Below the pieces are notes generated by a model. The model made no database searches and had not been told where the DNA came from. It worked only from the letters and a program-made list of their open reading frames with translations. Of a stretch of DNA of 64,000 bases, positions 10,674 to 39,441 are shown in pieces (the first letter of the stretch is position 1; each line of letters starts with the position of its first letter). The position numbers were made by a program, and so were the translations under genes. The stretch comes from Scatophagus argus (lineage: Eukaryota; Chordata; Actinopteri; Scatophagidae): contig NC_058512.1 of the NCBI RefSeq assembly GCF_020382885.2, positions 11,868,802 to 11,932,801 of the forward strand. Direction: 5' to 3'.

Positions 10674-13600
10674 CTACCTTGCGGTAGCTGGCTGGACATG
10701 GCCTGGATAGGAGCGGCGTGCGCTGGTGGCTTGTCTCTGCCGGGCCAAGAAGGACTGACCGGAGCCGGTGTTGGCAAGTCTGTCCTCAGCCGCCTTCTTC
10801 TGCAAAGACATACCCTGAGAAAAGATGCAGAGGGAGTATTATCATTGTTCTTAATGGTCACTGTCAGTATAATATGTCAGTTAGTACACAGAGACCCAAT
10901 AGCACAGTATGAGCCAGAACACTAAACTGTTTTAACACAGAGTGAGAGAGTCACCGCAGAATCAGCTACCGTCAGCCAACTAATCTTGATGCATGAGAAA
11001 GCAAATTAGCTTGAACAAAATATTAGCGCCAATTTAACAACTCATGAATGTTAACACTAGCTATTGATCAAATGTGTAACAGAGCAAATGTTGACTGTTA
11101 AGCTTATAGAAAGGCATATGCTGCCCTCTAGTGGTTAAAATACCTTCATGAATGACTTGTGACTGGCAAAAAAAAGTCTGCATTACTTTATGGTTACAGC
11201 TAACAAATATTTTTAACATAAATTAATCCAACAATTATTTTCTGTATTAATTATTGTTAATTAATTTATCTTTTTTTAATTGGTTACTTTGATATTAAGG
11301 ATTTTGTATATGATGACTTGAGTAGCTTTACTCCGGCATCTGACATCTGTGACTGGGCTCACAATGTCAGGCTGCAGGTCCTTCTTACCATATTGTACCA
11401 GGCTGACACAATCAGTTTCTCCTCATAATCTCTCTGGCCTTTTGTCTTGTCCATCTCTTTCTGTTTGGAGGAAACATCAAGCCACAAAAAATTAAGCAAT
11501 GCCAAGTGCTTTTTAAGTTATAATACACTGTCATCCAAAAGAGTTTTTGCACACTTCAAGAGGCTTCCTTCTCCTGTCAGTAGTTATCCATAAGGCAACT
11601 GGTACACCCAACTAATTTGCCATCTAATACTTAATTACCTCCAATGAGTGCAACATCCTCTCCTTTTCCTGCAGCTGGTTCTTCAGGGCCTGGACCTCTG
11701 GACCTGAACCCTGGTTCTGCTTGGGGTCCAGGGTTCGAATCACCTGGAGAGGACACATTCAATCACATCATCTACATTTTCTTGATGACCCACACCTATA
11801 ACAAGCATCAGTGATTACAGTACACCTTGCACAAGAAAGATCACCTGAACTTTGGTAGAAAAATGTACTCACGCTCTTGGCTTTTTCCAGGTATTTCTTA
11901 TATCTCTCCTCCATCAGTTTCATGTCCTCATCTTTCTTTTTCAAAGCCTCTTCAAGCTCGTCCACTCGTTGGGCTGAGGGGTGACACACACACACACACA
12001 TATTTGTTAAAAATAATAAGAACAGATGAAAAGAGAGGATGGAGGTTAACAGGTCAACACTCAGAATTCAACAGAGGTCCAAACTCACAGCAGGTGTTGT
12101 GTTTAAGCTCCATTTCGTCAATGAAGGAATTTTTCTTCAGTAACTCATTGTTTAACTCTCGTAGTTTCTCCCTGAGGAAGAACACAAAATATCAACATCA
12201 AAAGTGATCGTTTTAGGTCCAGCTTTACCTAAAATTCATTGCAGTAATGCAAGACTAAATCACGCTGTCGTTTTACATCGAGTTTAATGTCAGCCTGACA
12301 CAGAAAAGAAAAAAAACATACTTCAAGGTCTGTACATAACTTACATGTGCTCCTCGTATTTCTTCTTCAGAATGGAAGACTGAAAAAGACAAAGGATATA
12401 TTGTAACATTATTACAACCCATACCCCCTACATAAACTACAAACTAGAAACACTCAGTCAACATCACAGTTGTATTTCCCTTCTTATCCAACAGAGGGAG
12501 GTGTAGAACCAATAATGTTTGGAAGGGGTTACCAGTATGGAATAGTGAACTGCAAAATCTGTCAGGTCTGTCAGGCAACCAATAGAGAATTAATGTTTCT
12601 AATACTTATATTTTTAGAATTAGAGAAAGGTTGTAATTCCTTTTTTCATTTTTTTCATATATGTAGGCAGCATCAAACAACATCAAGGAGCAAGGAATGT
12701 TGGGTGACCACAGGAAGGGAAAATCTACATGTAGAGGATGGCAAAGGGCTGAATGAAGAATTAAAGATGCCTCTCTGATTCTACTAGGAAAATGTCCCAA
12801 CACATTGCTAGGAAAAAGTTTCTCTTTACTTTTGTGCATCAACTCAGTGTAATAATGGCATAAAAATCCTTCCTGAGGTAATTCTGGACAGATTATAATT
12901 CTACTCGCAAAGAAAATATACTGTATTTTGTAGTTCTTATTTTATTCTCTAAAGATGTATGATGTACAGTTTGCAAAATGTGTCACTTTATTACATTCTG
13001 AGTTGTTACACATTTGTTTCAGGAAGTCAAAGACTAAAGCAAACAGTGAAAGTTTAGAAGATTCAAGAAATTTGTCATAAATGACAAAGTTATACTTACT
13101 ATAGTCTGATTGTGGGAGCATTATTTGAAAAGAAAATGCACAAATATTTTATTGATTGGCAAGAATCATAGACCTGCCAAATGTGGATGATTTTACATCC
13201 GTGTGATAATCTGTGAAGGTGACACACTAGCTCCTAACGTAAATGACTGAAACTGTACTGACAATTCTACCTCTTGTGCACTGTCTTAGCTTAAGTGTAC
13301 TTTTTATAAACTTTATCACATTACATTATTATAAAATCCCGAAAACAACATGTTCTGGTCATCTCGAGTGAAAAAACAGATGATTAAAATAATAATAAGA
13401 AGAAACGTATAGAATGTTGGTGATGGCATGCAAAAGCTACACAGACGGACAGGATTGTTTAGTATTTTAAACTGGTTATTACTGTGGTTAATCACATGGT
13501 GGAGAAACACAGCAGCTCATGAAAGATGGCGTCAAACATGCAAGCTCTCTCTCACACATAAACCTTCTTGGGAGATGCTCCAAAAGCTCTTCTTCCTAAC

Positions 13601-16600
13601 CAGTTGTTCTCTACTAAAGACTAGTTCGAAGGAGACGGAAAACAGAGAAAATGAAAATGCTCCCAGTATGTCATGGAATATCTCCAACAAATTTGTGCTG
13701 CTCATTATATCACGGTCTGATCTGATGCTATCAACGCTATAGACAGAAACAATGTGGAAACAATGAGAAAGGACATACAAATGGAAAAACAAGTTGTGTT
13801 AGGAATACTTATTGTTAGGTGGAGTTAGTCACAACTAAAGGAGATCAAAAATGATTTGTTCTCTATGCAATGGGTCAAGCATGTACACACACATACAAAT
13901 GTGATATGTGTAAAACTGTTAACTCATTTTGCTGTTTTGCTTTCACAAGTCACTTGTGTTAAAATGAAATATCAAAAGCCTGAGCCTTTGGAAGGAGCGC
14001 TGTACTACAGCTTTGTCGAACATATTTATTTACCAAATTAGTATAATAAGAATTTGACTCTGTGTGGTTGTTGCCAACATTTCAACTGGTACCAGTTATA
14101 CACTTGCAGTGCTGGACCAAACATTTCATTACTCACATCATCCGCTTTGGAACCCTGTTCTTGAAGAGACTTCTGTAGCTCCTCCACCTGACTCTGTTCC
14201 TCCATCAGACGCTGATTGATTAGCCTAGATAAAAAGCACAAAAGGCCAGTTTGACAAGATCACAGCAATGAGCAAAATGCACACACTGGCAGATAAAACA
14301 ACATAGGGGCAGGTCACTGACTGAAAGGTTAGTATAGACAAAGGAAATCTTTGTGGGGAAATAAATGGAAGATTGATCCCCATTCCAACAGAAGGAAACA
14401 CAATCTTTCCACACGATACTGAACACAGAGGAGCACAGATGAGGAAGAGTGTTTTTCCTCATACAAGTACAAGTTGCTGTTAATTCCACACAGTTCTGTG
14501 CTTTTTGCAGACCTGTTCTCTGTCTCAAGTTCATTTTTCCTTCTGTTGGCATCCTCCAGTAGACTCTGCAAAAGTGCAATCTTCTCATTGTCTGATCCCT
14601 CCTGGGCCAGCTTCAACATCTTGTTCTCGTGCTGAAGACGAATCAAATGTTCTCTGTAAAAACACATTGGACAGAAGAAAGTGTTAATTTCTAATAAAAC
14701 TGGTAACTAATTATATACAGCTGGAATAAACCAATAACGGTTGTATAGGGACTCAACAACCCTACACAACATTTACCACATTACATCATTAATTCATTTC
14801 ATTATCATGACTAAAGATAACAGAGATCACCAACAACAAACACATTTTTAGTTACATAAGTGTATTTTTAGAGGAAACGCATAAGTCAAGATGCATCAGT
14901 TTTTTTGTGGATGAAGTTGCACATATCTTCATCATAAATATGGATTCACCACAATCTGCAAGTTTAGTGCCGGATTGATATCTTTATAAAAAATACTGCA
15001 ATGACTAAAAGCTGCAAACAGTTTGTAAATACACCATTCTTTAGCAACATCTAGAGGCATCTAAATCTATATATTGTGCATGCTGAAGAGCCAAGGGGTT
15101 ACAATCAAATGGAACTAAAAAGCAGGACTGAACACAGAAATGTTGTACAGGAAGACAGACAGAGAGCTTTGTCATACTGTAGAGTGAGACTGAGCAGAAC
15201 ATACATAACACTCAGGCTTCCCACTTCAAACTATCTACTTAACAGATAAGACTGGATGTGATGTTTGACAGTGTTGAGCATAGTCTGTCTCAGTCTGTGT
15301 TTTTTCAGGGTGTGGCTGCTGACTACTTTCCAATGGGAGAACTCACTAAATGTTTCCAGGCCAATTCACAGTTGCTGGACAGGAAAGGTTATGCCAGAGA
15401 TCGCAAAGTAAGACCAGAGAAGAGGTGCCAATAATACTTATACAATATTACACCAACATGATCATATTTCTTATGGTGGAGCTTTGATTCTTACTCTGCA
15501 GCAGATCCAAAGAAGAACTACATCTCCAGCTGTTGTTCTAGCTGTTTTATATTTGAAAGAAAAGTGGCAGGCACAAATCAATTCCAGATGTTGCTCATAA
15601 AAGCTACAGGTTGAATCTGGCAAAAAGAATTTCAGTACTCAACAATCACTGTTAGATGCTGAACTGACAACCAACAGACAGGAATGAGAGTGAATAACTA
15701 AGACACCCAGTTATGAGCTAGTTCTTCTCTTTAGATGCTTCACAGGAAACATCACTATTGCAACATCTTACTTCCATTTTCAAATGCTTGCAGGATATGA
15801 CATAACCTCGGGGTACAGTAGAAAAGCTTTTCATTACTCTACCACTAGAGAATAGTCTGGAGTGGGTTAACTCAAATAAGTTTTCTTTAGATTTGTACCT
15901 TTTAGAGGATTAAAATCAACATAAATAAATCACATCCACATTTTTCTTGGTTTGTAAAGCACGTCAGAAAACCCAGCCCTCTTGGAAAGCAGCAACTCGG
16001 CTGATGTAACTCGCAACTATTACATAACTCACTACAGGGACAGCTCTTTTTAGGCTTTAACACAGCAATGGGAGAGAGAGGAAGATGACAGAAACGCCAT
16101 CTGGCTGCAAAGTCCACACCAGCATCACAGACATGCCACACACACACGTCAGCAGAGAATTCAACTGCTTGCCTGTCATTGTAAAGCACCTCTCAAACAT
16201 GTTTGATGCCTCCCTAATGTTTACATTAATTTCCAAACCAAGATACATAAATATATTACATGATCTGATATTTGTTCCCCATAAACAGCTCTTTGTCACT
16301 ACATTCTCTTTTTTTCAAATAACTAAAGTGAAACAAGAAAACATTGGGTTCAAAATCATACCTAATCTCTGGGGTGGTGATCTCAGCAGCCAGTGAATCA
16401 GAACCGTCGTTGCTGGCCAATGGGAACAAACCTGAAACAAAAAGATGGCACCGTTACTGCAGGAAATTATTCTGGCTTGACCAAGTATGGCTAAAAAAAT
16501 AAATAAATAAGATGGCTTTTGATCATTTTACCTGATGTAAGCTGTCCCTCCTGGGCTTGGACGCAATGGAGCTCCTCAATAGTCTCCTTCAGAGAGTCTC

Positions 16601-19600
16601 TCTCTGTCCGCATACGCTATAGAGGGAGAGAAATGGACTTATGCAAAAATGTATATTGGTCTTTTTGTGGAGTAAAAAGAATACCGTTGGTTTATTCTAT
16701 CTTAATGTAGCAGTTCTTATGTTAATGAACTAAACTGTACATACATCCTTTTCCTTTTGCAGAGAGTCAACTTTCTCTTTGACACGTTTGTACTCAAACT
16801 CCATCTTGTCGGCCTTTTTGGATTCTTCTGACAGTCTGTTCTGAAGTTCAACCACCTGAACAGACAAAGGGAGGGTAATGACAAAACATTTTCTCTAAAA
16901 ATACACATAACCACGTGTGTGAGGGTTACACATACACTGCCCTCCATGTATGTAATGATTATTGCATGTGATAGTCAAAATGACTTTTAGTGAGGTACCT
17001 GTCTCTTGTATGTCTCCAGTTGGCTCTTGGCAGCATTCGCTTTTCGTAGCTCTTCTTCCAAACCGATGTTGGTCTGCATTAACACTGTGTTCTTCTCCTC
17101 CATAAGCTTATTCTAGAATATTGCAACAGAAATGTAGGTTTCAATTGTGCTGTTTAACATATAAATATTGTCAGTTGTTTGACTAACACAAAACAAACAA
17201 ATGGACACTCATGGTCCTGTTTAAATTCAGCAGAAGTCCTCACAAGGTTAAGTTGATACCATCATCTGTTGTCTGGGTGACTGTGTACCTGTCTCCTGAG
17301 GAGTCCCATGTCCTCTAATTTCTTCTTGTAGTGTTCCACTGTGCCCTCCAGCTTTGACACTTTGTCTGAAGAATGCCTGGAAGAGAAAAAACAGGTTCGT
17401 GTTATGCTATATTCGGAAAAGGAGGATGGAAAGCTTTACTAAAACTCTGTTTGTGCAGCAGCACACCTGTAACAACACAAGTCTGAAATAACAGGATAAT
17501 GGGTCGACTATATGTTATTTGTCTTGTGTCACCTCCTGTTTTTTGACTCATTTTCACTTCCATCAGGTCCTTGGTGCAAAACCTATTTCTTTTCAAATCA
17601 CTGATACCTTTAATTTTGGTTTAGCAAGCTGCTGCCAATACTTAATTTTGATAAATTTGATGTAGTCTGTCATGGATTATAAAAAAATAAAATTATCACC
17701 TGAGAGAGAGCCTCATTAGCCAAAGCAACAAGGATCATAGCTCTCTTACAGCAGTACCGATGAGCATGTGGTAGACTACTGCTGCGTGTCTATTAGTATG
17801 TATCTTCACTGAGACAAACAAAATGCATAATCAAATTCCTTGTAAATGTTCACATGCTTGGCAAGAAAGACTGAGCTGGCTAGACTCTTATACTTTAAAC
17901 CATCAAAGCTTTTATAAAAAAAAAATAAAATAAAGTATAAATGAACACATAATAAACATGATCTGTGAGACAATGATTGAATGGAATGACTTTTACAAAC
18001 AATGAACAGAATCTCTTTTCTTGATTAGGGTTTAGTTTGCTTTACTGAGGGAATGTCAGAGCCATGATTTTGCTTCCACGCCTAACCTGAGGACATCCAT
18101 CTCATCCTTGAGAGACTGGGCTTCATCAGCCAGAGAGACAAGCTCTTCATTCTGTGACTTTACATCCAGGAGTTCTTTTTCAAGCTCTTCACAACGGATC
18201 CGGTAGTCATCTTTTGAGGCCTCCAACCTAAGACAGAATTAACCACAATAATCATCTTTCAAATTTGAGGATTTTTGACAACAACTGAACTCCCGCTTTT
18301 TATGTGACAATATCTCTCTCCCTCTTGCAGCTAAGCACCTGAAGGTTTCCTCCTGCAGCTGCTCAAGTTGTGTCTGAAGCTGAAGGTGTCTGCGTCCAGC
18401 AGGGCTGTTTATATCCTCTATGGAGTCAGACTGGTTAAGTCTCTCCATCAGGACCTGGTTTTCTGCTAGCAAACTGCTCTTCTCCTCTTGCAGGGCTGCC
18501 ACCTGTGAGAAGGAAAATACCGAAAAAAGGGGGGGGCAAAAAACAGAAATGCCAAAAGAGGAAGGAGCAGGATGAAAGGGTGTCAATAGTGAGACACATG
18601 GGATCAGAAGAGGGGGGAGAAGATAGAGATTTGGATAACAGGAAATGAGAAAAAACAGAGGGAAAACAGGGATGGTATGGAGGATGGAACAGTTGTCGAG
18701 AGGGATGTTGAGAAAGGGAGAAAAGAGAAAGAGATGGCAAACAATTTAGAACGGAATGTCATTGGAAAAACATCCATATTATTGTATATCTCTCAAGCTA
18801 CTTGTACATGTAATATTTTCTTTACAGCATTCAATCTATTAATCACTGCAGCATTGATTTTGGTAATAAAGCAAGCACACACCAAAAACACGTCAACAAG
18901 GCAAACCAACAAACCCCATCTTCGCAAAGAGGGCTACATATGGTTTGATGTTGCCTAATCAGAATCATAGACAGGGTATCAAACTGCACACAAAGCAAAG
19001 CAGAAGCCTTTTTATGTGCCACATTACTAATTACAAAGTCTGCTGCATGTCATAAAATATAAGAACTGACCATATTATTTTCTAAATCTTAATTTTTTAG
19101 GAATAAATATAAAATATTTCAATTACATGACATGAACACGCTATTTATTTATTTTGGGACTTTGAAATAAATGTCATTGGGTTTTTCTGAGTTTTCTGGG
19201 AAAGTTACTTTTCTTTGAGCCTACACTGGCACATGGGACATCCACAAAACTGAATATGTCAAAGACATGATCAGGACAGCACAAAAAGAGGGAAATGGGA
19301 TCAGGACTCAGCTGTTTCATTCACAGAACCAGAAAAGGGCTTCCTACAGGTATTTAGCAGGTACAGGTATACTTGTGAGAAGTTATACAAGCAGACTGGA
19401 GTCTTTTTAATGACAAGGTTCCTAATATGCATTTTTTTCAACCAGTCAGTATAGTGTATAAATAATCTTAAGTTTGTGTAAATATTTGAGATATATTCAT
19501 ATATTTCACCAAGAAATAACTCCTTCCTGGTTCCAAAAGCCAAGTTTTTCCTCTTATCTACTGTTGCTGTGGGAAAGCATAAACCACACCAAGGTAAAAA

Positions 19601-22600
19601 GGCAGAGGGGTAATTAGTGAAGGGGTGACAAATGACACGCCCAGACAAAACTGCAGCTGTGGCTGGTGTGCCCTAAGAGGACCATGTGTATACGTGTGCA
19701 CAAACAGTTGTGCACTAACGTGTACACACACATGCACGCATATGTAGGAGAAGGGGACTCTGGATTCCAAAGGGGATGCTGGTGCAAGCAGACTGAAAAA
19801 ATCCAGGACTTTCAGACACACCACACACCATGGATGGAAAAAAGAGACAGAAAGAAAAATAAAGTTTGAATTTACCCTCTCTTCTAGCTCATTAAACTCT
19901 AACCTCAGTCTATCACGCTCCTCTTGGACATGGAGGGCCTTTAAAGCAAGGCATACAGTATTGGAATAGTCAGGAAATAAGAGGACACACAACAGGAGAG
20001 CAGGCCACCCTTTAAATAACAGCTCCGTTTCTTCTGCACTAACTGTGTCATAAGCAGTACGTTACATGTGAAAAAATATGATCAACTGCTATGAAGGTAG
20101 ATATAAAAAGTGGGTTACATTCTTTTTCCAAAAGTTTTAATGTTACAAACTGACAGGGAAATAAGTAAGCATAGGAAAGGGCCATCAGCAGCATTTGGTT
20201 TGATACCATATAATTACAGTGAACTTGTGCATAAAAGGGAGCTGCTTTTAAAGTGCAACCAAAAAATAGCTCGAAAAGTATGCAGTATGACACAATCAGT
20301 TAGATAGTAAAAGAGTTGCAAAATATAGCAGAAAAAGTAAGAACAAAACATTTAATTGGGTGAATATGAGAATACTACTTATTTATACCATCTTATTTTT
20401 CTGTTTAAATATATTCAACCTAATTAACAGCTACATTACTGCAAACTATATAATTGCTGTACATAAGACAAACTCATTTATTGACGGTATGTTGTTGTGT
20501 CTTATAAGGTAAAAATAAAACAAACAAACAAAACAAAGTGAATTCTATTTTGATTTTTCTGATTAATTTCAGTTCCAAATTGCATGCACAAGTATTGGTG
20601 CTCAAGGGAAACTCTTAATGCCTGACAATCAACATAGTGATATTTGACGAATTTCTTTTTAACACTTTCAGTGCTATGAATACATAGACAGTCCTGTGGT
20701 AATAAATGTACAAAAATAATAATATTATCCACTTCAACGTTAATTATTCACAAACTTTCTTCATAATAACAACAATAACAATAAGTATAATTTCAAAAAA
20801 ATGACATATAAAACCTCACCAGATGCACTGGTGGAGTTATGTTTTTCAGGTTTGGTTATTAATACATGTGATAGGAGTAGGACACTGTGCCATGATGTTC
20901 AAAATCAGCAGTTAAATAGCCTAAAACATTGTGGTTCTGACAGCATATGACCAACCTGCATGTCAAGCTCACGACACCTTTGGGAGATCTCTTCCTTGCT
21001 TGCCAAAGCATCATTCAGTTCCTCTGCTGTCTTCTTAAGCTGAGAACAGAAACAACATAAATAAATAAATACCAGGCAGATTTAATTTAATTTCCACACA
21101 ATTTTTTGTCCACTTGGATGAGACTAAAGAAACTCATTTACATCAAGGCATGGCCTAAATAAACATAATTTCCAAAAAATACCATGATATGTTTTTAAGG
21201 CACTTTGTACACAGTAATGATGACCCAGTATGACAGCCCTTCTGCTGAAGCTAGTTGTTACACAGATCCAGCTGTTTTACATGTCTGTGGCCAAAAAGGA
21301 AGAGAGTGAGACAGGATGTTTTATAGTGTAGCTTTGTATGCAATAACATGGATGTTGCGGTTTCAGTGGGAAATCCGGAAACTGGAGGGTGAGTTTAGCA
21401 CGTGAACGTTCAATATTGTACCTCAAAAGTCAAGTTTAGTGACTGTGTGGTAAAAGTGGTAACACTTTAAGATTTCAAACATGCATTAAGAGGCACCACA
21501 GTGAGCTTCTACAAAGCCTCTGTACCTGTCTGTCCAGATCCACGTATGAGTCATTTCCTCCCGTCACTGGAGTCTCCTTACTCATCAGCTAAAGAAACAC
21601 AGACAATCAGGTTAAGGGTTGAAGCACAAGTGTAGTCACCACCAATGCTTGTTTGACGTTGGCTCAGTGATGACAAACAGCACTTTTGTGTCAATTCAAC
21701 ATCTGCCCACTCCCACAGGATCCCACTGACGACCTGTTTCTGTTACTAATCTACACCTGACCAACCCCACATTATTCTTATTACTAATCATTCAGTATCT
21801 GCAGTTAATTTGACAGAGGTCTAAATAGATTTATAGCTCACTTCTTGGATGGCTGTCATGACAACGTGCTGCACTGACTCCTCCATCATCATTATGGTCT
21901 GGATGTATTCTAGAGAACACAGAGAAAGAAGTAGGGTTAAATTCCAGCTTCTGAGTCAGTTATTAATGCAAAGCGTGTATGGGATATGCACCTTGTTTCT
22001 GTTCACAGTTGACAGCACAGCCCAATATAAGCTGTAGCATCCTGCCGAGCTCTGCTGCGTCAGAATGTTCTCCAATGAGGTTAACATCGGGTAATGTGAA
22101 ATCGTTGATATGCTGGCCTAGGATCTATAAAGGGACAAAAGGTGTTTGATTTTTTTTTAATGATCGAACTACTTCATTATATGAATCTGAATTATTATGG
22201 CCTTCTCCATTCTTAAATTATTTAAAAATCGAGAAGGCCGTCACAACTATTGATGTAAAATGGATGGTGGGTACTGATCAAGTTTTATTTTTTTTTTTAC
22301 TTCAAAATGAATGCAATAGAGTGTTCTTGCCTCCTGGTTATAGTCGAGGATGCCTTTCAGAATTTTCTTCAGATTGCTGATCTGAAACAAGAAAGCGCTT
22401 ATGTAGAGGAATCCTCCGAATACCAGAAAAATCAATTCACACAATCAAACACAGGCTACACTTGAGCAAAGTTTAAATAATCTACGTTTCAAAGATGAAG
22501 TTACAAATTACTAATGTACACTTAACCAATATCAAGTAATTCTATATTTTAAAATGTAACATAACGGTAATGGATCAACATTCATACCAACATTTTTGGA

Positions 22601-25600
22601 GTTGGAAAGATCTGCTGTCATGTAGTTAATAGAGAAAAAAGAAACTGGCCTAACAAATCCTAAAGCATGCAGAAACAAACAATAACTGATACTCACCTTT
22701 AGCCTCCAGTTGTCGCCAACCTCTGGTTTTATTCTACTGATCCAAGCGTCATTGAAATATACAACATCTCTAGAAAATTCAGAAACACAGGAGAAAATAG
22801 GGATTAACAAGTGTTATCTTTTTTCTGTGTGCTCTTGTGAAGAGGCAAGGCACAGACAGCATGGGCAGATTTTTTTTTTCTTATAGATGAAGTGACAGTC
22901 CTACTAAATGTTTTATTATGTTTCTGTTTTATTGAGAGTTATATTTAAAGTACTGATGCATTAAACTGGAGCTGATAACAAAAAACTGGAGGGTAAAAAC
23001 TTACATTTTCTGCAGAACTTGGGCCATGACGATGCCACTCGTCAAGTCTTCCACTGTCTTGCATGGCGCCTCCACTCCAAATGTCTGGATCTAAAAGACA
23101 GACACGCAAACACACACCATAAGCACTGGGTGTAGTATAAAAGTATGCAATTACACCAAGTTGCCAGTTTATTTGAGGGCTCAGGCAATATAATCTCTTA
23201 GCAACATTCAAGAAACATTTAACATGATAAGCTACAACAGGTTCTCCTCCCAACGTTTCAGCAGCTCAAATGTGTGTAACTTGATGTTTTGTATGGGTTC
23301 TGGGTGACCAGCTGAATGCTATATTAACAGTGAAATACAGAGTTTATACTGAAATTGAACTGATGATTGCTTTTCCGTTTCACTTTCACTTTGATGTTCT
23401 AATGGGTTCTTACTTTCCCACCACCATTTTCTACCTTTTTCTATATTTCGATGTTCTCCTTAAAAGATACTGCTGAGCTAGAAGGCTTCAAGTCTCTGCA
23501 TTGATGGTGTCTTTCTACAGCAGCTATAAATAATAAATACAATCACACTGCTTTATCAAACGTTCTCTCAACTTTGCTTGTCATCATTGCTCAGTTTCTC
23601 TTACATCACCTCTATCGCTTTATCTGATCTTTTTTTCTTCAGACTTCACTTGGCATGTCTTTGTTCTCTTTCTATCCTCTGTACACCACTGTTTTTTTCC
23701 CCAGACTGAAAGTCTGTTGCCCAGCCAGTAGTGAATATTTTTCAGTGTACATGCCAAAGGAAGAGGGGAAATTGAGAGCAGAAATTCTGACAGGAAGAAA
23801 ATGACGAGGTTGAAATCCTGCACACACATCGCTCCGTCTGCGGCGCTTTTCATTTTGTGGCAGCTCTCAACCCTTCAGTCACAGATTTGCCAAGAGCAGA
23901 AGGCAGCAAATGACAGATTCAATAGACTGGCCAAATGGTTGGAGAGACTGTCTATCAACCAGGGACACTGGTTAAATCCCTGATGAAGGATTTATCCTGG
24001 ATCCATATGAAGTAACTGCAATAACTCCGGTTTCCAACATAAAATCTGCTCAAACTTCAAATTGCTGGAAATATTTCACTTTAAAAAGCAGCTACAGGCA
24101 TTGAGTTGGCAATAACATGTCATTTTACTTGATGTCTTATCAAACTTGAAACTGGCTGAAGAGCTCATTTTCTTAAAATAAACATGATGCAAGAACGAAG
24201 CAAAAGAGAATTCACTATGCTTTAACAACTTATTATTTTTAATTCTCTATAAATAATGCCCTTAGTCTTTCACACTGTGCAGCATTTCATTAAGTCAAAG
24301 AAAGAAAAGCCGCGCAATACTATTTATTAGCAGAGAGAGATATCAGTAAACAAGAAGACACTCGACACTGTACGCTGCAAAGGACAAACTCAACATGACT
24401 TGAGGACTACATGACACTTAAAATAACATTCACAAAACCATCTTATAAATTCCATGCTTTTAATATTATTTATACAAGGTTATAAGTGCTGTTTTACTTT
24501 ACACTGGATATAGTTGGTCATAAAGTGGAACACTTTTGATTTAATATGATCCTTGAAACTTTTGTCTATTTTCACACTGCAATGACTGCCAAATAACCTT
24601 CATGACGTCAATGTTGTTTATTTCACAGATATGTGTCTCCTTGTTTGTCAAATGATCATGTTTGCTGTAACATTACAGTGCAATTATAATGTGAAGTTGC
24701 ACAACTGTTTCCCTCTGTCGAAGGATAATCCTGAATGTGTAATCAGTACTGCTTGCGTTACTGTTGACATCAAGCCGGTGCTTGTTGTTACAATCATTGA
24801 TCTAACGATCAGTGGCATAATGCTGCTGCGAGAGGTGAAACACTGAAAACCTGCTTAACTTGGCCCAAGGACTTTCAGGTTGCAAGAAGTTGCAATAAGA
24901 TGTGTATCAGTAAGAAACATAGTAGCTAAAGCCAACCACTGGCCCTGAGCCAATAAAGAACCAAAACAATAGCCCCGATTATATAACAACTACCAGTGAG
25001 AGAAAACTGATCGGTAACAAATTGTTCATTCTACTTAGTTAACTTAACTGGACTGCAAACTTAACACTACAGAACAATCTATCTACAGAACACCCTTTCC
25101 TGTGATGCAACATTATCATGTCCTGGGTTCCACACTGACTTCCTGTGTTCATATGCTATTACCATATAATAATGGCAAACGAGAGGTCACATTAGAATGG
25201 ATGATGTCAAACATGCTGCATTAAACTGACCTTTCAGACTGAGCTCACTAACACGTAATATGAGTTGAAGCACTATATTAGTCACCTTCAATGTACTAAA
25301 TACTTGTTGTCCAACACATACAAATCTGTTGCATTTTGCTGGCTGTACTTTATCCCCTTATATGGGACTCTGTAGCTTTTTCTTGACAGCTAAAACTATT
25401 GTTCCCAAGCAGCAATGAGTTCTCATTAGGTCTACAAAACCTGTAGTACACATACCACTGGATTACAAAGCCTTTCAGCAGAACATATGCCCATGTGATG
25501 TCTCCTGAAAAGCCACCATCAAGCAGAGCCGGCAAGCAGCTTTTCTTTTGCTGTGTGGGACACTGTGCAGGCACTAGCCATCGGTCAGTAAAGCCCCATT

Positions 25601-28600
25601 TTGCCAGCTCTTTTCTGAATAACTAATGGCACATATATTGTGCTGTTAAAGGTTAATTGTGTCACACTTGATGCCTTGGATCCTAATCAAACATAACATC
25701 ACATATACAGAGACTTATTGCATTTTGGTTATTAAATCAGCCAAAACATACATCATGGTAAAAATAATATTTTTTGGATATCAATCTAGACTGTATAAGA
25801 ATCAATAAATAAATGTTTTATGTTATATTAAATGTTTATCTAAACTCTATGGGAAGTTCTTGAAAGACCTATCTATTTATGTTAGCATAATCATTCTTAC
25901 ATTTCAGCCTTGGCAATGACGCTTATTGTCGCTTTAAGTTAATTGCTTTCAAGTATTTTTTGAGTATATGTTTAACTTTTTGTTCTGTCACTGAAACCCC
26001 ACAACACCGGTTAGGTAACAGATCTATGAGTAGTGGATGTCCACCACAGTGTAGTGGCGTAATAATGTTATTTCTCTGCACAGTATATTTGGTCCTGTTA
26101 GTACCCAATTTGTGTGTGAGCAGCAATGTAATAACGGAAAACTAATTAATCTAGAAAGAAAACATAACTTGAACTGATGAAGTCTGAGGCTCGAGTTTAA
26201 CAAGATTTGCTCATGTTTCATGGTCTAACCAGATAACAGTCAACCTGCTTTGATCACACCATCGTCCACCAAATGTCCACCGCAACTCAGACCTACACAG
26301 AAAAATAAGAATGTCTGAAAGTGTATGAAACTTTAAAAGGCTATACAATGGACCCTAAGGACAGAAAATGCTTCACCAAAAGAAGTATTTACCATGATAC
26401 CCTAAGCTTTTTTAGCCAAATGAACAAAACCCAATGTAATGACAACATTTTCCATGAATCACTGAAAACAATTAGAGCAAAACAGAGCAAAAGCAAAAAA
26501 ATTACAACAAAATTAATACGATATTGCCGTTGAAAATAGGTACACAAAGTAAGCACTGGCATACAAAACAGAGACTGGGCAGACTAAGGTCAAAAAAAGG
26601 AAATCCACACCTAGGCGTTATGGAAACAGATGGAAGAGGACCCAATCAAAGTGCCCACATGGCCAGGACTGAAATGGGCTGCAAGAGCATTCACATGAAC
26701 TCACAATTAAGGTTGTTTGATACAATACTAACAAAAAAAAATTACCCTAGGCACACAAAACAGATTTTTTGGCACAATGTACCGGTAGAGGAAAAGGTCA
26801 CTGAATAAATACGTACATCGGTAAATGATCAAAGATGATAACAACAAGCACCAGGAAGATGTCAACAATGAAGTGAGCAATGCTGATTACAGATTCAGGA
26901 TTATCATTCGCCGCAGGGAAAACAATCTTGCAACTTCAAGCAACTACTGCAGAGTAACATTACAGCAAACACAGTCATCTGAATATGCGGGTAAACACAC
27001 ATCAGGGGAATAAGCAACAATTAGAATATCCATCTTGATACAAAGACAATAGGTAATCCATATGCAACAACTGCTTTCTTTTTCCTCGACAACCCTACTA
27101 TGCACAAGGGAAACACGCAAAAGCTATCAATCATAAAAACAACTTAAACAAAGGTAACAACAAAGGTACTGTACAGTAATAATATAATAATGAGAAAGGG
27201 TTATTTTGTTCTTAATAAAACACAATTCAAATCTCAACAGAGACACATACATGTGAATGCTATCTATAAGCATCAGTAGTAAATGTGAGCTCAACTGGTT
27301 TGCTAACCCCCAATAAACACAGAGAAAAAGGGACAAACAACAAGTGTAGCACGCTGTTGTCACGCTCATGACGTCAAAGTGCTGCATCCAGGTAGAGTCA
27401 TGCAGTGTAGATCAGAGAGCCAAACATGTCATTGTTGGTGTGAACGTCTTTACAGTTTCAGAGGAAAACAACACGATTGTTATTTGCAATGCATGTTCCA
27501 CAAGGTTTCAGAGAGGAGGGAAAAAGTCTCCTAGTTTTAATTGGAGATATGGGATGTTACATTACATTACATCATCAAGTGTGCATAATTTAGAAAGACA
27601 AAAAAGGACCTTGAAAATACTGGGATGGAAAAGAAAGAATAAAGCATTTGGCATTGATAACATTCTAATACAACCAGCTTTATCTTTTTAATATTAAAAT
27701 TATCTGTACAAGTGATGTATAATAGAAAGTAAAAATAAAAGTGAGAGTAAGTGAGTAAAGAGAAGTAAGAGTACAAAATGTCAGTAGCAGCTCAGTAAAT
27801 GGTCATGCGTTGGGCGTTATATGTGTCTTAGTATGTACATAGATTATATCTAAAATTGTGCTAAAATGTTCGGCTGGGTCTAAATTTTTTTGTGTTTGTT
27901 CTAAAACTCCATTTTAAAATGAAAATGTACTAGTGTGCACGTAGCCATAGTCTCACACTTTGTGACAGGTAAGTGTTGTGACTTCACAGTTAACAGGTAT
28001 GTGAGGAATGTTAGCCAGTCACATCATTACTAGGAACTATAAGAAAGGTCATTTTGAGTTGTCATAGATAAGATAAGCTATGACAACAAGAGGCAGAAGT
28101 GACAGATGCAGAATGCACATAGACTGTAACTGTGAACTGAATTTACCAGTTTGCCAAATGCCTTTCATACTGAACAATCATTTTAAATATCCACTTTTGA
28201 CAAAGATTAACTATTTTAATTTTAATAAATGCATTTTTTTCCCCTAGATGTTCCACACAAACTTGGAAAGGCCTACTTCTCAATTTCACAACAGGGAAAC
28301 CAATTGATTTCAAAGACATGTAAGGAAGCACATGACCATGCAGAAGCAGGGTCACTTGTGTGTACCAACCTCTGCAATAACCACATACATGTTTTCACTA
28401 TAAACTACTGAGATTTATGCTGGCGGTGTATTGTGAAAACATGTAAGTATGTATGTGCACTTTCCAACACATTCACAGTCCTGTTTATACATCTGACAAT
28501 TCTTTGATATGCAAGCTTAAGCTTCATAAATATGTCTTCACTTCCATTGATTGTTGCCTTTTTGCTATTTGAAAGCCTACATTACTTTTAAGAGATCCCT

Positions 28601-29494
28601 AGATTTAGTTTATTTTTTAAGATGTACGATGGGAACACTGAACGTCTATCAGCTTGGCTGTCATAGTCACGTCAGCAGTTTTATTTTTTCTCAGATTAAA
28701 ACATTAACTGTTGAACCCAAAGAACTGACAATCGGACGAAAAACACTTGGGCATTTTGGACGTACAATAAAATTATGAGGCCTCACTTCCAACCACATAG
28801 CTGCATTCCAACAACGTAAACATGCATGTGATCCTACAATCTGGTGTCTTGATTCCACTTGGTAGCTTATATATCGCTTTCAGGCTAGTCAAAGACAAGA
28901 ACGATTTAGAGCTTGCAAATCCAGTCACGGAAAGATAGTTAGCCTGCATGTGATATTTTTGATCAGAAGGGGGAATGGGGAAGGGGCATAATGATGCGCT
29001 TGACAACAATGACAGGAATTCCGAACTAAAGCACCGACACACTGTAACGGTATATCCCCAACCAAAAGGAAAACCCATGTTAAAAAAAGCGTTGAACCGT
29101 AATAGGGCCAATGTCTGCCGCTGGATCTCACTGCAATATAAGACCGAGCATTAGGGTGAGCTAACCAAACACCCGATTGCACAAAGCTATAACCAAAATC
29201 ATAGTCTTCAATGGGTAGTCGGGTTTGTTGGCGGCTAGCATGCAATACATCAGCAGCAAACAGCTGGCCTGCATACGTAACCAAAGTGAGCCCGTGTCAA
29301 TTTCCTCTAGCCTGCTAACGTTACCCCAGCCAGCTCATCGAGCTAGCATTAGCCCTGCATGCTAGCTAGCATCGCCGGCGCCGGAGAGCAGTATATCAGT
29401 GGAAAGAAGACAAAAAACTTCATATTTGTCAACTTACCCATGTCAATAGGCTTTCACAGAGCTCCATTCGGTCCAAGGACTCTGATGTACTCAT
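10674..29494 (-). CDS. hook3: Hook microtubule-tethering protein 3
   Basis: Hook3 is a cytoplasmic adaptor that activates dynein-dynactin and links it to cargo. The 23 coding exons, in transcript order, are 29494-29438, 23090-23005, 22769-22697, 22381-22331, 22124-21992, 21909-21842, 21588-21526, 21039-20956, 18502-18339, 18227-18087, 17376-17289, 17112-16999, 16855-16745, 16616-16532, 16431-16362, 14653-14513, 14224-14137, 12379-12345, 12171-12089, 11973-11873, 11743-11639, 11460-11389 and 10814-10674. They join into 717 residues (human HOOK3 is 718). Residues about 6-165 form the Hook (calponin-homology-like) domain, with VGDNWRLK and ILGQHINDF; the rest is coiled coil plus a C-terminal tail ending in GHVQPATAR. 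The phrases SDSIEDINSPAGRRHLQ and the tail identify Hook3 rather than Hook1 or Hook2. The start has A at -3. Intron 4 uses a GC donor. An extra in-frame cassette exon lies between exons 8 and 9. Confidence 0.97.
19876..19938 (-). CDS. hook3: Candidate in-frame cassette exon of hook3
   Basis: This 63-nt open segment lies in the large intron between hook3 exons 8 and 9. An AG acceptor (CTTTAAAG) precedes it and a GT donor (AGG then GTAAAT) follows; a possible branch point (CTGAC) is upstream. It is phase 0 at both ends, so it inserts 21 residues after Q205 without changing the frame. The peptide starts ALHVQEERDR and ends FNELEER. V4, L11 and L18 are spaced by seven, with A1, R8 and F15 in the paired heptad position, so it adds exactly three coiled-coil heptads. 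I know of no counterpart in human HOOK1 or HOOK3. The weak splice sites suggest alternative use; transcription is not shown. Confidence 0.6.
23091..29437 (-). other. hook3 intron 1
   Basis: This is the largest hook3 intron, about 6.3 kb. I found no coding exon in it. It contains a tRNA-like segment near 23.93 kb and a CpG-containing cluster of GCTAAC/GCTAGC motifs at about 29310-29375, next to exon 1. The remainder is AT-rich sequence in which I recognise nothing. Confidence 0.7.
23927..23990 (+). other. tRNA-like segment, possible SINE head or tRNA relic
   Basis: The sequence TGGCCAAATGGTTGGAGA resembles a tRNA A box (RNA polymerase III), and GGTTAAATCCC about 30 bases later resembles a degenerate B box. 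Between them CTATCAA could be a seven-base anticodon loop with T at position 33, flanked by a weak stem. No clean acceptor stem is visible, so a functional tRNA is unlikely. A tRNA-derived SINE or a chance match are both possible. Confidence 0.25.
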
Positions 29495-32554: not shown

Positions 32555-35500
32555 CTAGCCGTTCAGTCTCTGTGTAACCACCTCTCTGTACATGATAGAG
32601 ATGTACACAAAGAGAAGTAGGATTACAAAGAAATCGTCCATGAATCCCAGGAGACCGAAAAGTGCCTCGGGGAGGATGTCGAGCGGCGAGGCCAGGTAGG
32701 TGAGTGCACCAACTAAACAGAGAAGAATACGAATCCTGAACATCCAGAAGAGGCCACCCACAGAAAACATCTCCCTAAAGGCGTGACGAAGCAGGGTAGG
32801 CACATCGCGCAGCCTGTCCATAAACTGAGAAGACAGAAGAGAGAAAATATAAAGAGAAAGTCTGTTCTAAATATACATCTGCTTAGAATAAACTTCATGA
32901 GTTAGTCTCTCATCTGCATACTTGTGTCTTTTAACGGATTCTACAATTTGGAGGGACATTACAAATAGAATTTTAATCTTTCAAAAAAATCAAAAACATA
33001 ATAATCAATACTGCTTTCTACATACTTTCATAATATTTAATATAAGAGGACAAAGAGTGTTTCTAACAGCATAGTCAACCCTTTTCTATTTCAAGAACTG
33101 TTCCAAATCCCACATATGTGTACAGAATTTAAATATGAATATAAAGCAAATCGACTGCAGCCCAAGTATACATATGGCTGTAGTACACTCACAGATCTTG
33201 GCTGGCCTGAGAACCTGCGGTTGTAATCATTAATGTCTCTTAATATCAGCAGAGGTTCTGCTTCGCCATCCTGGACCCTCTGGGGACTGGCATGCTCATG
33301 AAATAGCGGGAAGAGCAATGTTACCTGGACAAAGAAAAAATAATCAACACGTGACAACACTGATGCCAAAATGTTATAGTATGACGTACACCTACATGAA
33401 TAAAAACATCTGAATGAAGAAACAGAAAGACTGTGTATGCAGTCTTACTGTGTAACAAAGTGAAACAGGATCAGAGGCTACCAGAAGAAGAAGCAGGACG
33501 ACTACAAACACCCTCACTAACACAAATATCATCCATCATACATTCTCTTTGACAGAAAACAATTAGACCTAAACATAAAAGGTCCAGTGTGCAATATGTA
33601 CATATGTTCTGTCTCATATGTACAGACAGAACAGGTCCTCTTCACTGACAAAATATAAACATAGAAGATGCATTTCCACTTCCTTCCAGAGTACAAACGT
33701 GAAGCCAAAATGATTGGGCAGTGGAGTTATTGCCCACAGACCGGCCTGACCCAATTAAAAGCACCAAAAGACCAAAGTTAGTGTTCATAGATGAGGATTT
33801 TCCATTTATCTCTATGGGTGAATCTGAAAGCAGGCAATATTAACAGTTACTTGTATGTCTGCCATGTGAAAAATTGTAATACTATTGATAAAGCTCAGCT
33901 CAACCATTCTACACCCAAAATTTATCACAAGTCTCACCGTTTGTCTGCAGATGGGGCACTTAATAGCACCCAACCAGGTGCCATATCTCCAGTAAGCTAT
34001 AATGCAGGAGCCTATACAGGACAAAGACATCACTTTATCACACAAACACACAAGTACAACAAAAGAGCTAATATCTCCTCAGTTATAATTTGAGTCATTT
34101 GAATTTTTACAACTATACTTGTTTCTGTGTATTATCTAAAGATAAGCCTCACATCAGTGTCTGCTAACCGAATCTAGCTAAGAAAACATGCTCAAGAAGC
34201 GATGATTGCTTTTTTCTCTCTGTTTCATGATATAACAACTTTGCATAGTGCATATTCCTAGAATCTCTATAACACTCTTACCACAGAAAAGGTGTCCACA
34301 ATTGGTTTCCACAGGCAGGACAGCCTGCTGTAAACACACAGGACAAGACATGTCGGTATAATACTGCTGTCTGGTCTCCGCCTGAGAATTTTCATCCTAA
34401 CAGAAAGAAATCAAACACACAGATAAGATAAACAGTAATCGCAGAGTAGATGATTCTGAAATTCATCTGTTGATTGAGAAATAAAATACAAGTGTATGAA
34501 AGATAAAAAGATAAAGCATATTTACCTAGTGCACAATATAGTAATTGAGGAAAAATTTCTTAAAAATTTATAAAATTTGTTTGTGGTTAATTTTAAGAAA
34601 CATAGTCCCTTTGCAGCTTCCTGTGATTTTAGGGCTTTTCAGCTTACTTTCCCAGCTTTCTACTACTTTCTAGTATAAATACTTAAAATGGTGCTCAAAA
34701 CTAAATACATCTTGATACAATAACACAAAAAATATTTGAAAGCATTATAATGGTAATACCCGTGTCTGACGTCTGGTGCAAGACTACCAGTTAAACCAAA
34801 CACAAAGGTGCTGAAATTGCAGTGTTTATTACTATTGTACGTCTGATTTTATATGTAAAAAAAAAACAGATTTTGTGTATTTGTGTTGTTTGTACGTTAT
34901 CTTAGTCAACCATACTTGTCCAGAATGTCTACAGTAGCATTTGGTTGTGTACCTGTTCTGTTTGGAGCTGTTGTCGGACAGCTCGAACGTGCTCCTGATT
35001 CTCAGGGTGAATATTCTGCTCCTCTTGTCTGTAGGGTCAAAAGGCAGACATTTAGAATCATAATATTCCACAGTCGAAACTTATGAGTGCAACAGCTCTT
35101 TAAACTATGCAAACTGATAAGATGATTTTATGTCCAAATTTTAAATCTTGGATTGGATGAATCTTCAAATGATATAAAGCAAAAGGTAAAAGGGCAGGCA
35201 GTTGTAGAAAATTCAGTGCTCTATTATCTGACCACAGTGGCCGAAACTGATCACTGTCTACTACCAACAGGGATGAAAAAACGATTGGTCCAATCAGTTT
35301 AATTTTAATGTTCATAAATATGAACCAGCAGTCTGCTACGTGGTCCACCTTTGACCACCTTTTACTGAAAAATGTCTAAATGAGTTTCTCCAAAAGTTAG
35401 AGTAACTCTGAATTATCTACTTTGTGATTCTTCTTTACATTCACATCACTGTGAATTTGCTGTATACCTGCAGAGCAGAGTGAGGAGGCCTGCAAGGAAG

Positions 35501-35607
35501 GTGATACTGAGGACCACAACAAACAAGACCTGGTTGCTGACACCCTCAATGAGGGTGTCCTCATCTTGGATCAGGTAGTCCAAGTCCCCACATTGACTGT
35601 CCTCCAT
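32555..35607 (-). CDS. rnf170: E3 ubiquitin ligase RNF170
   Basis: RNF170 is an ER-membrane RING ubiquitin ligase; the mammalian protein works with the erlin complex in degradation of activated IP3 receptors. The six coding exons are 35607-35468, 35028-34953, 34396-34282, 34011-33938, 33324-33193 and 32824-32555, giving 268 residues (human 258). A first membrane segment lies at about residues 29-46. The RING finger is C3HC4, with C90, C93, C105, H107, C110, C113, C129 and C132 visible. [15 protein letters not shown] follows, then two more membrane segments at about 212-227 and 243-258 around the conserved [17 protein letters not shown] stretch. The start has G at -3 and G at +4. The acidic linker before DINDYN is more divergent than the rest. 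All introns are GT-AG. Confidence 0.96.
33570..33700. repeat. Possible degraded interspersed repeat in rnf170 intron 4
   Basis: The phrase AAAGGTCCAGTGTGCAATATG resembles the start of a repeat family seen widely in fish genomes. No terminal inverted repeat or coding remnant could be confirmed, so the borders are approximate and the call is weak. Confidence 0.25.
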
Positions 35608-36948: not shown

Positions 36949-39129
36949 ATGCCTCGTTATGCGCAGTTAGTTATGGGCCCAGCGGGTAGCGGTAAGGTGA
37001 GTTGTCCGTCATTCAGTTATACGTGCTGACGTCCTTTGCTATGTTATTAGGCTAAGGCGCTAAGCTATGGCGTGAGGTTCTCCTCCGCATGACGTTAGAC
37101 GTTAGCAGCCTTATAACTGTTTATTATTGGAGTTTTTATTTTCCATTTCAGAGCACCTACTGCTCCACCATGGTCGAGCATTCACAGTCCATTAACCGCT
37201 CAGTTCAGGTGGTCAATCTGGACCCAGCAGCTGAGCACTTTGACTATCCTGTCATGGCAGGTAAATAAAGCGTGTTTAACTTACATGAAACGATAATTAC
37301 GTCTAATTACAAAGAGTAAATCTTAGTCTTACATAACCCAGAACAGAGGTGTCACAAAATAAACACACGTGTTTTAAGGGAAGAAATATTGTTATTACAT
37401 GTACATGCAAGCCATTACCCATTAGACAATGTTTAATGTCTAAAGCACTACAGCACTATGATGGGGTTTGCTAACAATGAATGGATGGAGGTAGTTAGTT
37501 CATGTGAAGTAAAATATTACATATTTAAGTATGACCAGTGACCACATAGGTCGCAGAAACAGTATAAGAAAATAGTACAAAACAGTACATTGTATCATAA
37601 AGAGATAAGATTTGGGTTGCTTAAGTTCTGTTCTTCAAGACAACCCTATTTTTCTTCTGTGCCCTCAGACATCCGTGAGCTTATCCAGGTGGACGATGTG
37701 ATGGAAGACCATTCTCTCAGATTTGGCCCTAATGGAGGCCTGGTCTTCTGCATGGAGTACTTTGCTAACAACTTCGATTGGCTGGAGGAAAGCCTGGGTC
37801 ATGTCGAGGATGACTACATACTGTTCGATTGCCCAGGTAAACAGTGTGGCAGTGTGGGAACGCTGAAGCCAGTGCAGAATGCATTTACCCACTTCTGTTT
37901 GTGCTGGGTATGATCCTGTATGATTAGTACTGCTTGAAGAGCAAGGCAGCTTGAGTAACAAATGAACAGGAGATACTAAAATGAGATTTGCCTTGGTTTT
38001 CATTCCAGCATTTTTGATTATGAATTACTGTGTCACCAATATTTACATCAGAATTAGAGATACAGCTTTGTACCAGTTTTCACAGCTTTAATGCAGTTTT
38101 GACAAGTGGGTTGTTTTTGCAGGTCAGATTGAACTTTACACACACCTCCCTGTAATGAGGCAGTTGGTGGAGCAGCTCCAGCAGTGGGAGTTTCGAGTGT
38201 GTGGAGTCTTTCTGGTAGACTCCCAGTTCATGGTGGAGTCTTTCAAGGTAACTGCTGATCTGTACACTATCTTTATCTGTTTATGTGAGCCTCCTTTATG
38301 TCTAATCATACTTCATTTCTTAATTTACATAACTTAAAGTAGTTGTGAAAGCATGTGAAACATTTCCCCTCGTCTGTTAATGCAGTTCATCTCAGGAGTC
38401 ATGGCTGCTCTGAGTGCCATGGTGTCATTAGAGATCCCTCAAGTAAACATCATGACAAAAATGGACCTGCTTAGTCCCAAAGCCAAGAAGGAAATTGAAA
38501 AGTAAGTTTTTAATGGCTTCAACCTCAGTTAAGCTGTTATAAAAAAAAACCTAAGCCTTGTAAAAGAGGGCCGTCAGCTGTTTTCTTAATTCTTACTAAG
38601 TTAAGCTTGCCAATTAAACAGGCTTTGCTTTCACCAGGTACCTGGACCCAGACATGTATTCAATGATGGAAGATAACTCAGATACCATCAGGAGCACAAA
38701 GTTCAAGAAGTTGACTCAAGCCATCTGTGGTCTGGTAAGAGAAGTCTGTAATTTGATATTTCATTTTGTTTTGGGTCAGGATTTAGAATTATTTTGATAA
38801 GATGGTCTCTTTCTGTCTGTTCGTCCAGATTGATGACTACAGTATGGTGAGATTCCTTCCCTTTGACCGCACAGATGAGGAAGGTATTAACATAGTATTG
38901 CAACACATTGACTTCTCTATACAGTATGGAGAGGACCTGGAGTTCAAGGAACCAAAGGTGAAGAAACAAACAAAAATGAAACACAATGAAATATCATTTA
39001 ACAGTATGGATAAAGTAATTACAAGTTATTTTTTGTGATTCAATTTTTTTTTCTTTTCTGCAGGAGGTTGATGAAGAGTCTGCTAACCTAAATTATGATG
39101 AGATTTTTCAAGACAAAGTGGACAGTTGA
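36949..39129 (+). CDS. gpn3: GPN-loop GTPase 3
   Basis: Gpn3 is a small GTPase that acts with Gpn1 in assembly and nuclear import of RNA polymerase II. The eight exons are 36949-36996, 37152-37260, 37669-37836, 38123-38247, 38386-38501, 38638-38734, 38829-38957 and 39064-39129, giving 285 residues (human 284). The P-loop GPAGSGKS is at residues 10-17, NLDPAAEHF follows, the defining GPN motif is at 72-74 in [21 protein letters not shown] carries the switch region, and TKMD at 174-177 is the guanine-specificity motif. The acidic C-terminal tail is typical. The start has A at -3. The gene is head-to-head with rnf170 and in tandem with arpc3. Confidence 0.97.
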
Positions 39130-39168
39130 GGAGTAATGTGACTCCAAAAAAGGACTTGTCAGAGTTTT

Positions 39169-39174
39169 AATAAA
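39169..39174 (+). terminator. gpn3 poly(A) signal (proximal)
   Basis: AATAAA lies only 40 bases after the gpn3 stop codon. A second AATAAA at 39436-39441 would give a longer 3' UTR ending just before the arpc3 promoter. Confidence 0.6.
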
Positions 39175-39441
39175 ACATTTAAGGCTGATGAAGATACGAG
39201 ATTTGCGATATCAAACCCATATGGAGACCTATGGAGGCTGTAAGGACACTGAGGAAGGGACATGAGGAAGCACACTCTCCAAACATCATCACTTATCTTA
39301 TGTGATAAAAGTTTTCCTTTTTATATGCTTTTCTGATAAATTGTGATTTCATCCCATTCATGTTTCATTATTTCAAGACAATGGTCAAGTTTTAAAGAGT
39401 TGTTATTAAATCAATGTATTACTTATATATTTTTAAATAAA

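What the first reader, a model, noticed from the sequence alone, without database searches (positions are those of the whole stretch)
19876..19938. In-frame three-heptad cassette exon in hook3
Seen: a 63-nt phase-0 segment with AG acceptor and GT donor lies between hook3 exons 8 and 9. It encodes 21 residues with V4, L11 and L18 spaced by seven. Known: human HOOK3 passes directly from ELDMQ to VAALQEEK at this point. Inferred: an alternative exon lengthens the first coiled coil by exactly three heptads, keeping register. That would change the distance between the Hook domain and the dynein/dynactin-binding coiled coil without disrupting it, and so could tune adaptor activity by splicing.
Basis: partly seen in the sequence, partly recalled or inferred. 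Interest (0 to 1): 0.72.

Follow-up and report, generated by a model that had tools for sequence, protein, structure and literature searches.

The report
Optional three-heptad exon in hook3
A fish gene for a cargo adaptor of the dynein motor carries, inside an intron, a small well-formed exon that would lengthen the adaptor's rod by exactly three coil repeats, close to the point where the rod probably grips dynein; whether cells use it still needs RNA data.

Summary
Window 19938-19876 (minus strand) is a 63-nt phase-0 segment between hook3 coding exons 8 and 9, with AG acceptor and GT donor, encoding ALHVQEERDRLRLEFNELEER. Chance is unlikely: its splice-plus-codon score is 27.6, the best in the other 21 hook3 introns is 8.4, and 0 of 3000 simulated introns reach it. 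Its a/d positions (A V R L F L) fit the one heptad register of seven that is best for both flanking exons. A genome search found only the exon itself, and no comparable exon turned up in that intron of hook1 or hook2. I judge it a real coding exon, probably optional; no RNA or other fish genome was available. One refinement: the insertion point appears to lie inside the likely dynein heavy-chain site (HBS1), between Gln197 and the glutamates that open exon 9, and the cassette carries its own QEE at the same spacing. Inclusion would keep an HBS1-like start and push downstream contacts about 3.1 nm along the rod. Seven capped paper searches listed no paper that I recognised as describing this exon.

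The parts
19876..19938 (-). candidate cassette exon, 63 nt, phase 0-0, ALHVQEERDRLRLEFNELEER (three heptads)
19939..19951 (-). acceptor with short pyrimidine tract (ccttgctttaaag), score 6.09; position -3 is A, not the usual pyrimidine. A CTGAC branch-point-like sequence lies about 31 nt upstream of the exon (read by eye)
19870..19875 (-). donor AGG|gtaaat, score 6.24
20956..21039 (-). hook3 coding exon 8, 84 nt (28 residues, four heptads); ends QRCRELDMQ, holding the predicted HBS1 glutamine Q197
18339..18502 (-). hook3 coding exon 9; opens VAALQEEK, the predicted HBS1 glutamate patch
19731..19736 (-). TGCATG (RBFOX-type motif, recalled) 140 nt downstream of the exon; the motif is no more common in the window than chance gives (63 found on both strands, 58 expected)
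10674..29494 (-). whole hook3 coding region, 23 exons, ATG to TAG
   Evidence: Pfam HOOK_N and HOOK

Best explanation
The segment is a real, probably optional coding exon of hook3 (the confidence below is for this part). When included it inserts three whole heptads after Gln205, keeping the coiled-coil register. Shown: splice signals, phase, coding-like codons, register fit. Inferred (about 0.4): the insertion falls inside the dynein heavy-chain site HBS1. Exon 8 ends with its glutamine (QRCRELDMQ) and exon 9 opens with its glutamates (VAALQEEK). The cassette opens ALHVQEER, so QEE and a basic residue sit at the same spacing from Q197 in either splice form, and exon 9's own patch moves 21 residues on. 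The long form would thus still grip the light intermediate chain and heavy chain, but the second half of its HBS1 is different and every downstream contact (dynactin, elbow, the Spindly-like LAAEI at 453, autoinhibitory partners) lies about 3.1 nm farther away. The expected effect is a splicing-controlled change in dynein-dynactin activation or in HOOK3 autoinhibition, not in cargo choice.
For: Score above all other hook3 introns and above 3000 of 3000 simulated introns. Both splice sites lie within the range of the gene's own. a/d residues A V R L F L in register a, the best register for exon 8, cassette and the start of exon 9 alike; 0.5% of 100,000 residue shuffles do as well. No control candidate of equal score has the same heptad score. 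8 of 21 identities with the first 21 residues of exon 9, including QEE at the same place; among 1942 in-register pairs inside hook3, 1.2% score as high and 0.4% have 8 or more identities. HBS1 is described as QxxY/H followed by glutamates in BICDR1 and HOOK adaptors (PMC7615804, passages), and in recalled human HOOK3 letters (to residue 433) the only such site after residue 160 is Q197RCH200. First coils of adaptors have a rather regular modelled length of 35-39 nm (PMC9481740, passages), so 3.1 nm is a sizeable change. HOOK3 is autoinhibited, with CC2 cross-linking to CC3 and CC4 (PMC11996680, passages).
Against: No transcript evidence at all. No other fish could be compared; bacterial and viral collections gave no relative. 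This fish has QRCR and no QxxY/H in the coil before residue 656, so the HBS1 placement is uncertain; the HOOK3 row of the published alignment is in a figure I could not see. hook1 and hook2 show no comparable exon, so it may be lineage-specific and dispensable. Splice sites alone prove little: hook1's matching intron holds an open phase-0 segment with stronger sites (sum 18.9 against 12.3) whose peptide does not look like a coil. A study of human brain and HeLa reports no alternative splicing of Hook exons, data not shown (PMC4370497, passage). In 400 kb of control DNA 19 clusters score as high, 8 of them with both sites comparable, real exons not removed, and two unassigned + strand candidates in the window score higher (30.9 and 27.9).
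Confidence: 0.66

Rival explanations
1. The exon is real but constitutive in this lineage: all hook3 transcripts of this fish carry it, and the short form is the human-like state.
For: Splice sites are within the range of the gene's other exons. Nothing in the sequence proves skipping.
Against: The acceptor is in the weaker part of the range (4 of 22 lower). The Pfam HOOK profile fits better without the insert (696.6 against 683.4 bits), and hook1 and hook2 keep the same phase-0 junction with no insert found, which favours the short form being functional.
Confidence: 0.17
2. A relic: a once-used exon that still looks intact but is no longer spliced in.
For: No RNA evidence of use was available; not found in hook1 or hook2.
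Against: Frame, both splice sites and heptad pattern are all intact, which neutral decay would soon break (inference).
Confidence: 0.08
3. A chance pseudo-exon.
For: Long chance-open frame around it (167 codons); 19 clusters as high by score in 400 kb of control DNA, real exons not removed, 8 with comparable splice sites; an open segment with stronger splice sites in hook1's intron.
Against: 0 of 3000 simulated introns reach its score and the next hook3 intron scores 8.4; no control candidate has its heptad score; register match P 0.005.
Confidence: 0.07
4. A real optional exon whose role is not dynein geometry but another surface, for example a binding or modification site, or modest tuning of coil stability.
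For: Many residues outside a/d are charged; adaptors with a much shorter coil, such as JIP3, still activate dynein (PMC7615804, passages).
Against: I recognised no motif beyond the QEE resemblance (by eye, no motif search run); the exact three-heptad length and the register match suggest that coil geometry is what is kept.
Confidence: 0.2

Closest known systems
HOOK3, vertebrate dynein-dynactin activating adaptor (Pfam HOOK_N PF19047 and HOOK PF05622)
   Same: The host gene: Hook domain and coiled-coil region; the protein without the insert matches Pfam HOOK_N at 11-156 and HOOK at 197-707.
   Different: The 21-residue insert lowers the Pfam HOOK score, is absent from recalled human HOOK3, and was not found in this genome's hook1 and hook2.
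HBS1, heavy-chain binding site 1 of activating adaptors (BICDR1, HOOK, JIP3, Spindly; a putative one in NuMA)
   Same: Glutamine followed by an acidic patch (PMC7615804, PMC11623564, passages); the cassette junction keeps Q197 and QEE at the canonical spacing.
   Different: The motif would here be split by an intron and its second half exchangeable by splicing; the fish residue after QRC is R, not Y or H.
Heptad-unit alternative exons of coiled-coil proteins such as tropomyosin (recalled)
   Same: Exons that swap or add coil without breaking register.
   Different: Tropomyosin's are mutually exclusive exons (recalled); here one exon is simply added.

Membership tests
hook3 (HOOK family adaptor) | N-terminal Hook domain and HOOK coiled-coil region | tested here: met
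   HOOK_N 241.6 bits, HOOK 696.6 bits; exon-by-exon match to recalled human HOOK3
hook3 (HOOK family adaptor) | hook3 rather than hook1 or hook2 | tested here: met
   match to recalled human HOOK3 along the gene; two other hook genes lie on C6 and C16 (56.1 and 33.8 bits against 100.9 here), called hook1 and hook2 by recalled sequence
cassette exon | AG acceptor, GT donor, length divisible by 3, same phase as the skipping junction, no stop | tested here: met
cassette exon | both inclusion and skipping junctions occur in RNA | not testable with these tools
cassette exon | conserved frame and splice sites in related species | not testable with these tools
   no other fish genome held (one search states no relatives); two searches found no relatives in bacterial and viral collections
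register-keeping coiled-coil insert | insert of whole heptads with hydrophobic a/d in the register of both flanks | tested here: met
   21 residues, a/d A V R L F L (five of six hydrophobic), best of 7 registers, shuffle P 0.005
HBS1-containing segment | QxxY/H followed by glutamates | tested here: inconclusive
   recalled human HOOK3 has Q197RCH200; this fish has QRCR; glutamates follow in both splice forms
duplicate of exon 9 | DNA similarity beyond that of shuffled sequence, in exon and flanks | tested here: not met
   27 of 63 nt identical (codon-shuffle P 0.023); local alignment with flanks scores 21, within the range of shuffles

The most novel reading that the evidence does not exclude
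hook3 uses splicing as a geometric switch: the intron splits HBS1 into a fixed glutamine half and an exchangeable glutamate half, and the cassette carries its own glutamate half, so including it keeps heavy-chain docking while moving dynactin, Spindly-motif and autoinhibitory contacts 3.1 nm along and around the rod, giving tissue-specific adaptor activity.
Probability: 0.25. Interest if true: 0.75.

Novelty: new variant of a known kind. Interest (0 to 1): 0.5.

Why it matters
How strictly adaptor length and the HBS1-to-Spindly-motif spacing govern dynein activation is open: modelled first coils are of regular length (35-39 nm, PMC9481740, passages), yet a shorter adaptor also works (PMC7615804, passages). 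A natural splice form that adds exactly three heptads at HBS1 would be a ready-made test, needing only two otherwise identical proteins, and would add splicing to the ways in which dynein adaptors are tuned.

Tried and rejected
Duplication of exon 9 or of the 403-423 segment as origin: the protein resemblance is notable (scores 27 and 38), and 0 of 1942 in-register pairs within hook3 reach 38. But 4.7% of hook3 coil 21-mers, any register, have a best match elsewhere in the coil of 38 or more, DNA similarity to exon 9 is weak, and 403-423 straddles the exon 13/14 junction, so I treat it as convergence or very old. Repeat origin: a search of the 570.7-Mb genome with 175 bases around the exon returned only the place itself; the tool warns that this does not prove rarity. 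Paralogous exon in hook1 or hook2: in the matching introns tblastn gave no sense-strand hit to the cassette better than E about 9, and an intron scan listed 6 and 2 open phase-0 segments, none coil-like to my eye. RBFOX regulation: one TGCATG 140 nt downstream; the motif is at chance frequency in the window. A longer alternative donor giving 39 residues loses coding character. Rfam: no family at gathering score in the window. PDB by sequence: no chain at E up to 0.001 for a 103-residue query around the site.

The first null (coiled-coil codon model, 0 of 400 simulated introns) was repeated with a whole-CDS codon model, which is less favourable; the 27.6 and its counts come from that. In these models the cassette itself was left in the intron background (slightly against it) and was never in the coding set. 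On checking I found that one peptide (for 32651-32695) had been put together from two frames and was no real translation; one search repeats the scan with in-frame window DNA.

Full report
What is there. hook3 occupies 29494-10674 on the minus strand. Starting from a tblastn probe with recalled human HOOK3, I set all 23 coding exons by their splice sites; the joined frame has 718 codons including the stop and no internal stop. Coding exon 8 is 21039-20956 and coding exon 9 is 18502-18339. Between them lies a 2453-nt phase-0 intron, and in it 19938-19876: AG, 63 nt, GT, phase 0, ALHVQEERDRLRLEFNELEER.

Is it more than chance? I scored every phase-0 AG-to-GT open segment of 30-180 nt by acceptor, donor and codon log-odds (coding exons of hook3 against its introns; the candidate was not in the coding set). 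The splice matrix is recalled, of Shapiro-Senapathy type. The candidate scores 27.6. The best in the other 21 hook3 introns is 8.4. Of 3000 simulated introns of the same length (second-order Markov from the hook3 introns), 0 reach it and the maximum is 24.1. Over the whole window, both strands, it ranks 11th; of the 10 above it, 8 overlap true hook3 exons and 2 on the + strand (32651-32695, score 30.9, and 35479-35574, score 27.9) could not be assigned; the in-frame stretches around them match no Pfam family. It ranks above the true exon 7, which scores 20.5.

Results against. In 20 stretches of 10 kb from the same genome (400 kb with both strands, real exons not removed) 19 clusters reach this score with the all-CDS codon model, 8 of them with both splice sites no more than 1 bit below the candidate's; with the coiled-coil model 9 reach the corresponding score, 3 of them with such sites. 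Many of the peptides read like real exons, which I did not check. Scaled to 2.45 kb of one strand, 8 in 400 kb is about 0.05 and 3 in 400 kb about 0.02. None of these candidates reaches the cassette's heptad score of 7.4; the maximum is 3.9 among the 63 rows of the all-CDS model. In the matching intron of hook1 one open phase-0 segment has stronger splice sites (sum 18.9 against 12.3) but its peptide does not look like a coil.

Register. Exon 8 is exactly four heptads, the candidate exactly three. Scoring hydrophobic a/d positions in all seven registers, the same register is best for exon 8 (LTLAKICL), the candidate (AVRLFL) and the start of exon 9 (VLKLNLL); 0.535% of 100,000 residue shuffles do as well in that register. 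This test does not use the splice signals and is, to me, the strongest sign that the peptide is meant to be read.

Where the insert falls. Published text describes HBS1, the adaptor motif for the dynein heavy chain, as QxxY/H followed by a patch of glutamates in the BICDR1 and HOOK families (PMC7615804, passages), or as a conserved glutamine and acidic patch (PMC11623564, passages). In the recalled human HOOK3 letters (to residue 433) the only QxxY/H after residue 160 is Q197RCH200, followed by ELDMQVAALQEEK; the fish has QRCRELDMQVAALQEEK and no QxxY/H between residues 162 and 655. The splice junction after Q205 therefore cuts between the glutamine and the QEEK patch. The candidate's first heptad gives ALHVQEER: QEE and a basic residue at the same distance from Q197 as in the short form. 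Over all 21 positions it has 8 identities with the start of exon 9; 1.2% of 1942 in-register pairs inside hook3 score as high, 0.4% have as many identities. HBS1 placement in HOOK3 is my inference; the published alignment is in a figure that was not readable.

Likely mechanism. Hook domain, light-intermediate-chain site and HBS1 glutamine keep their spacing; the acidic half is replaced by the candidate's version; everything downstream moves by 21 residues, about 3.1 nm (0.1485 nm rise per residue, recalled). With a supercoil pitch near 14 nm (recalled) this also turns the downstream coil by roughly 80 degrees. AlphaFold models give first coils of BICD2, BICDL1, HOOK1, HOOK3 and TRAK1 a rather regular 35-39 nm (PMC9481740, passages); HOOK3 has coils at residues 160-239, 240-440 and 480-665 (PMC12152161, passages); and HOOK3 is autoinhibited, with CC2 cross-linking to CC3 and CC4 (PMC11996680, passages). 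A longer first coil could change docking along dynactin or the fold-back. Against a strong effect: few if any contacts between adaptor coil and dynactin filament were seen with JIP3 and BICDR1, and JIP3, with a much shorter coil, activates dynein (PMC7615804, passages).

Origin and relatives. A genome search with the exon and flanks (175 bases) returned only the place itself, with the tool's warning that this does not prove rarity. hook1 (C6) and hook2 (C16), so named from recalled sequence, keep the same phase-0 junction, but tblastn and an intron scan found no comparable exon there. DNA similarity to exon 9 is weak (27 of 63; codon-shuffle P 0.023; local alignment with flanks not above shuffles), so recent duplication is not supported. 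Bacterial and viral collections hold no relative of a query from exons 9-10. A genome-wide search with the junction peptide did not complete (last tried).

Literature. Seven searches: HOOK3 with splicing or isoform terms (20 of 42 papers listed, 20 of 50), dynein adaptors with splicing (20 of 48), HBS1 and adaptors (15 of 86), hook3 with zebrafish (20 of 52), splicing terms (25 of 1236 listed, none of these holding hook3, so uninformative) and HBS1 with HOOK3 (3 of 3). No listed paper was recognised as describing this exon; I saw listings, and passages of eleven papers, no whole text, so absence from print is not shown. One paper on human brain and HeLa states that no alternative splicing of Hook exons was found, data not shown (PMC4370497, passage). 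Another follows a HOOK3 'ex2' event in differentiating muscle cells (PMC8764412, passage), by its numbering a different exon.

Verdict. Estimates: real coding exon about 0.9; optional about 0.7; measurable effect on dynein-dynactin or autoinhibition about 0.4.

Noticed in passing
22331 (donor of hook3 coding exon 4, minus strand): The intron after exon 4 has a GC donor (GAG|gcaaga), a rare but known class.
   Followed up: no
32651-32695 and 35479-35574, + strand: Two exon-like open segments between hook3 and the GPN-loop GTPase gene score slightly higher than the cassette (30.9 and 27.9) but match no Pfam family; unassigned.
   Followed up: partly
58955-59509, + strand: Reverse-transcriptase fragment (Pfam RVT_1, 69.4 bits), probably of a LINE-type element.
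   Followed up: partly
about 37100-42440, + strand: Exons of a GPN-loop GTPase gene (Pfam ATP_bind_1; GPN3 by recalled sequence) and then of arpc3 (Pfam P21-Arc) next to hook3.
   Followed up: partly
hook3 residues 403-423 against the cassette at 19938-19876: The cassette resembles VDSLQKEKDRMRTERDSLKET more than any two in-register hook3 segments resemble each other (0 of 1942 pairs reach 38), though that stretch spans an exon junction.
   Followed up: partly
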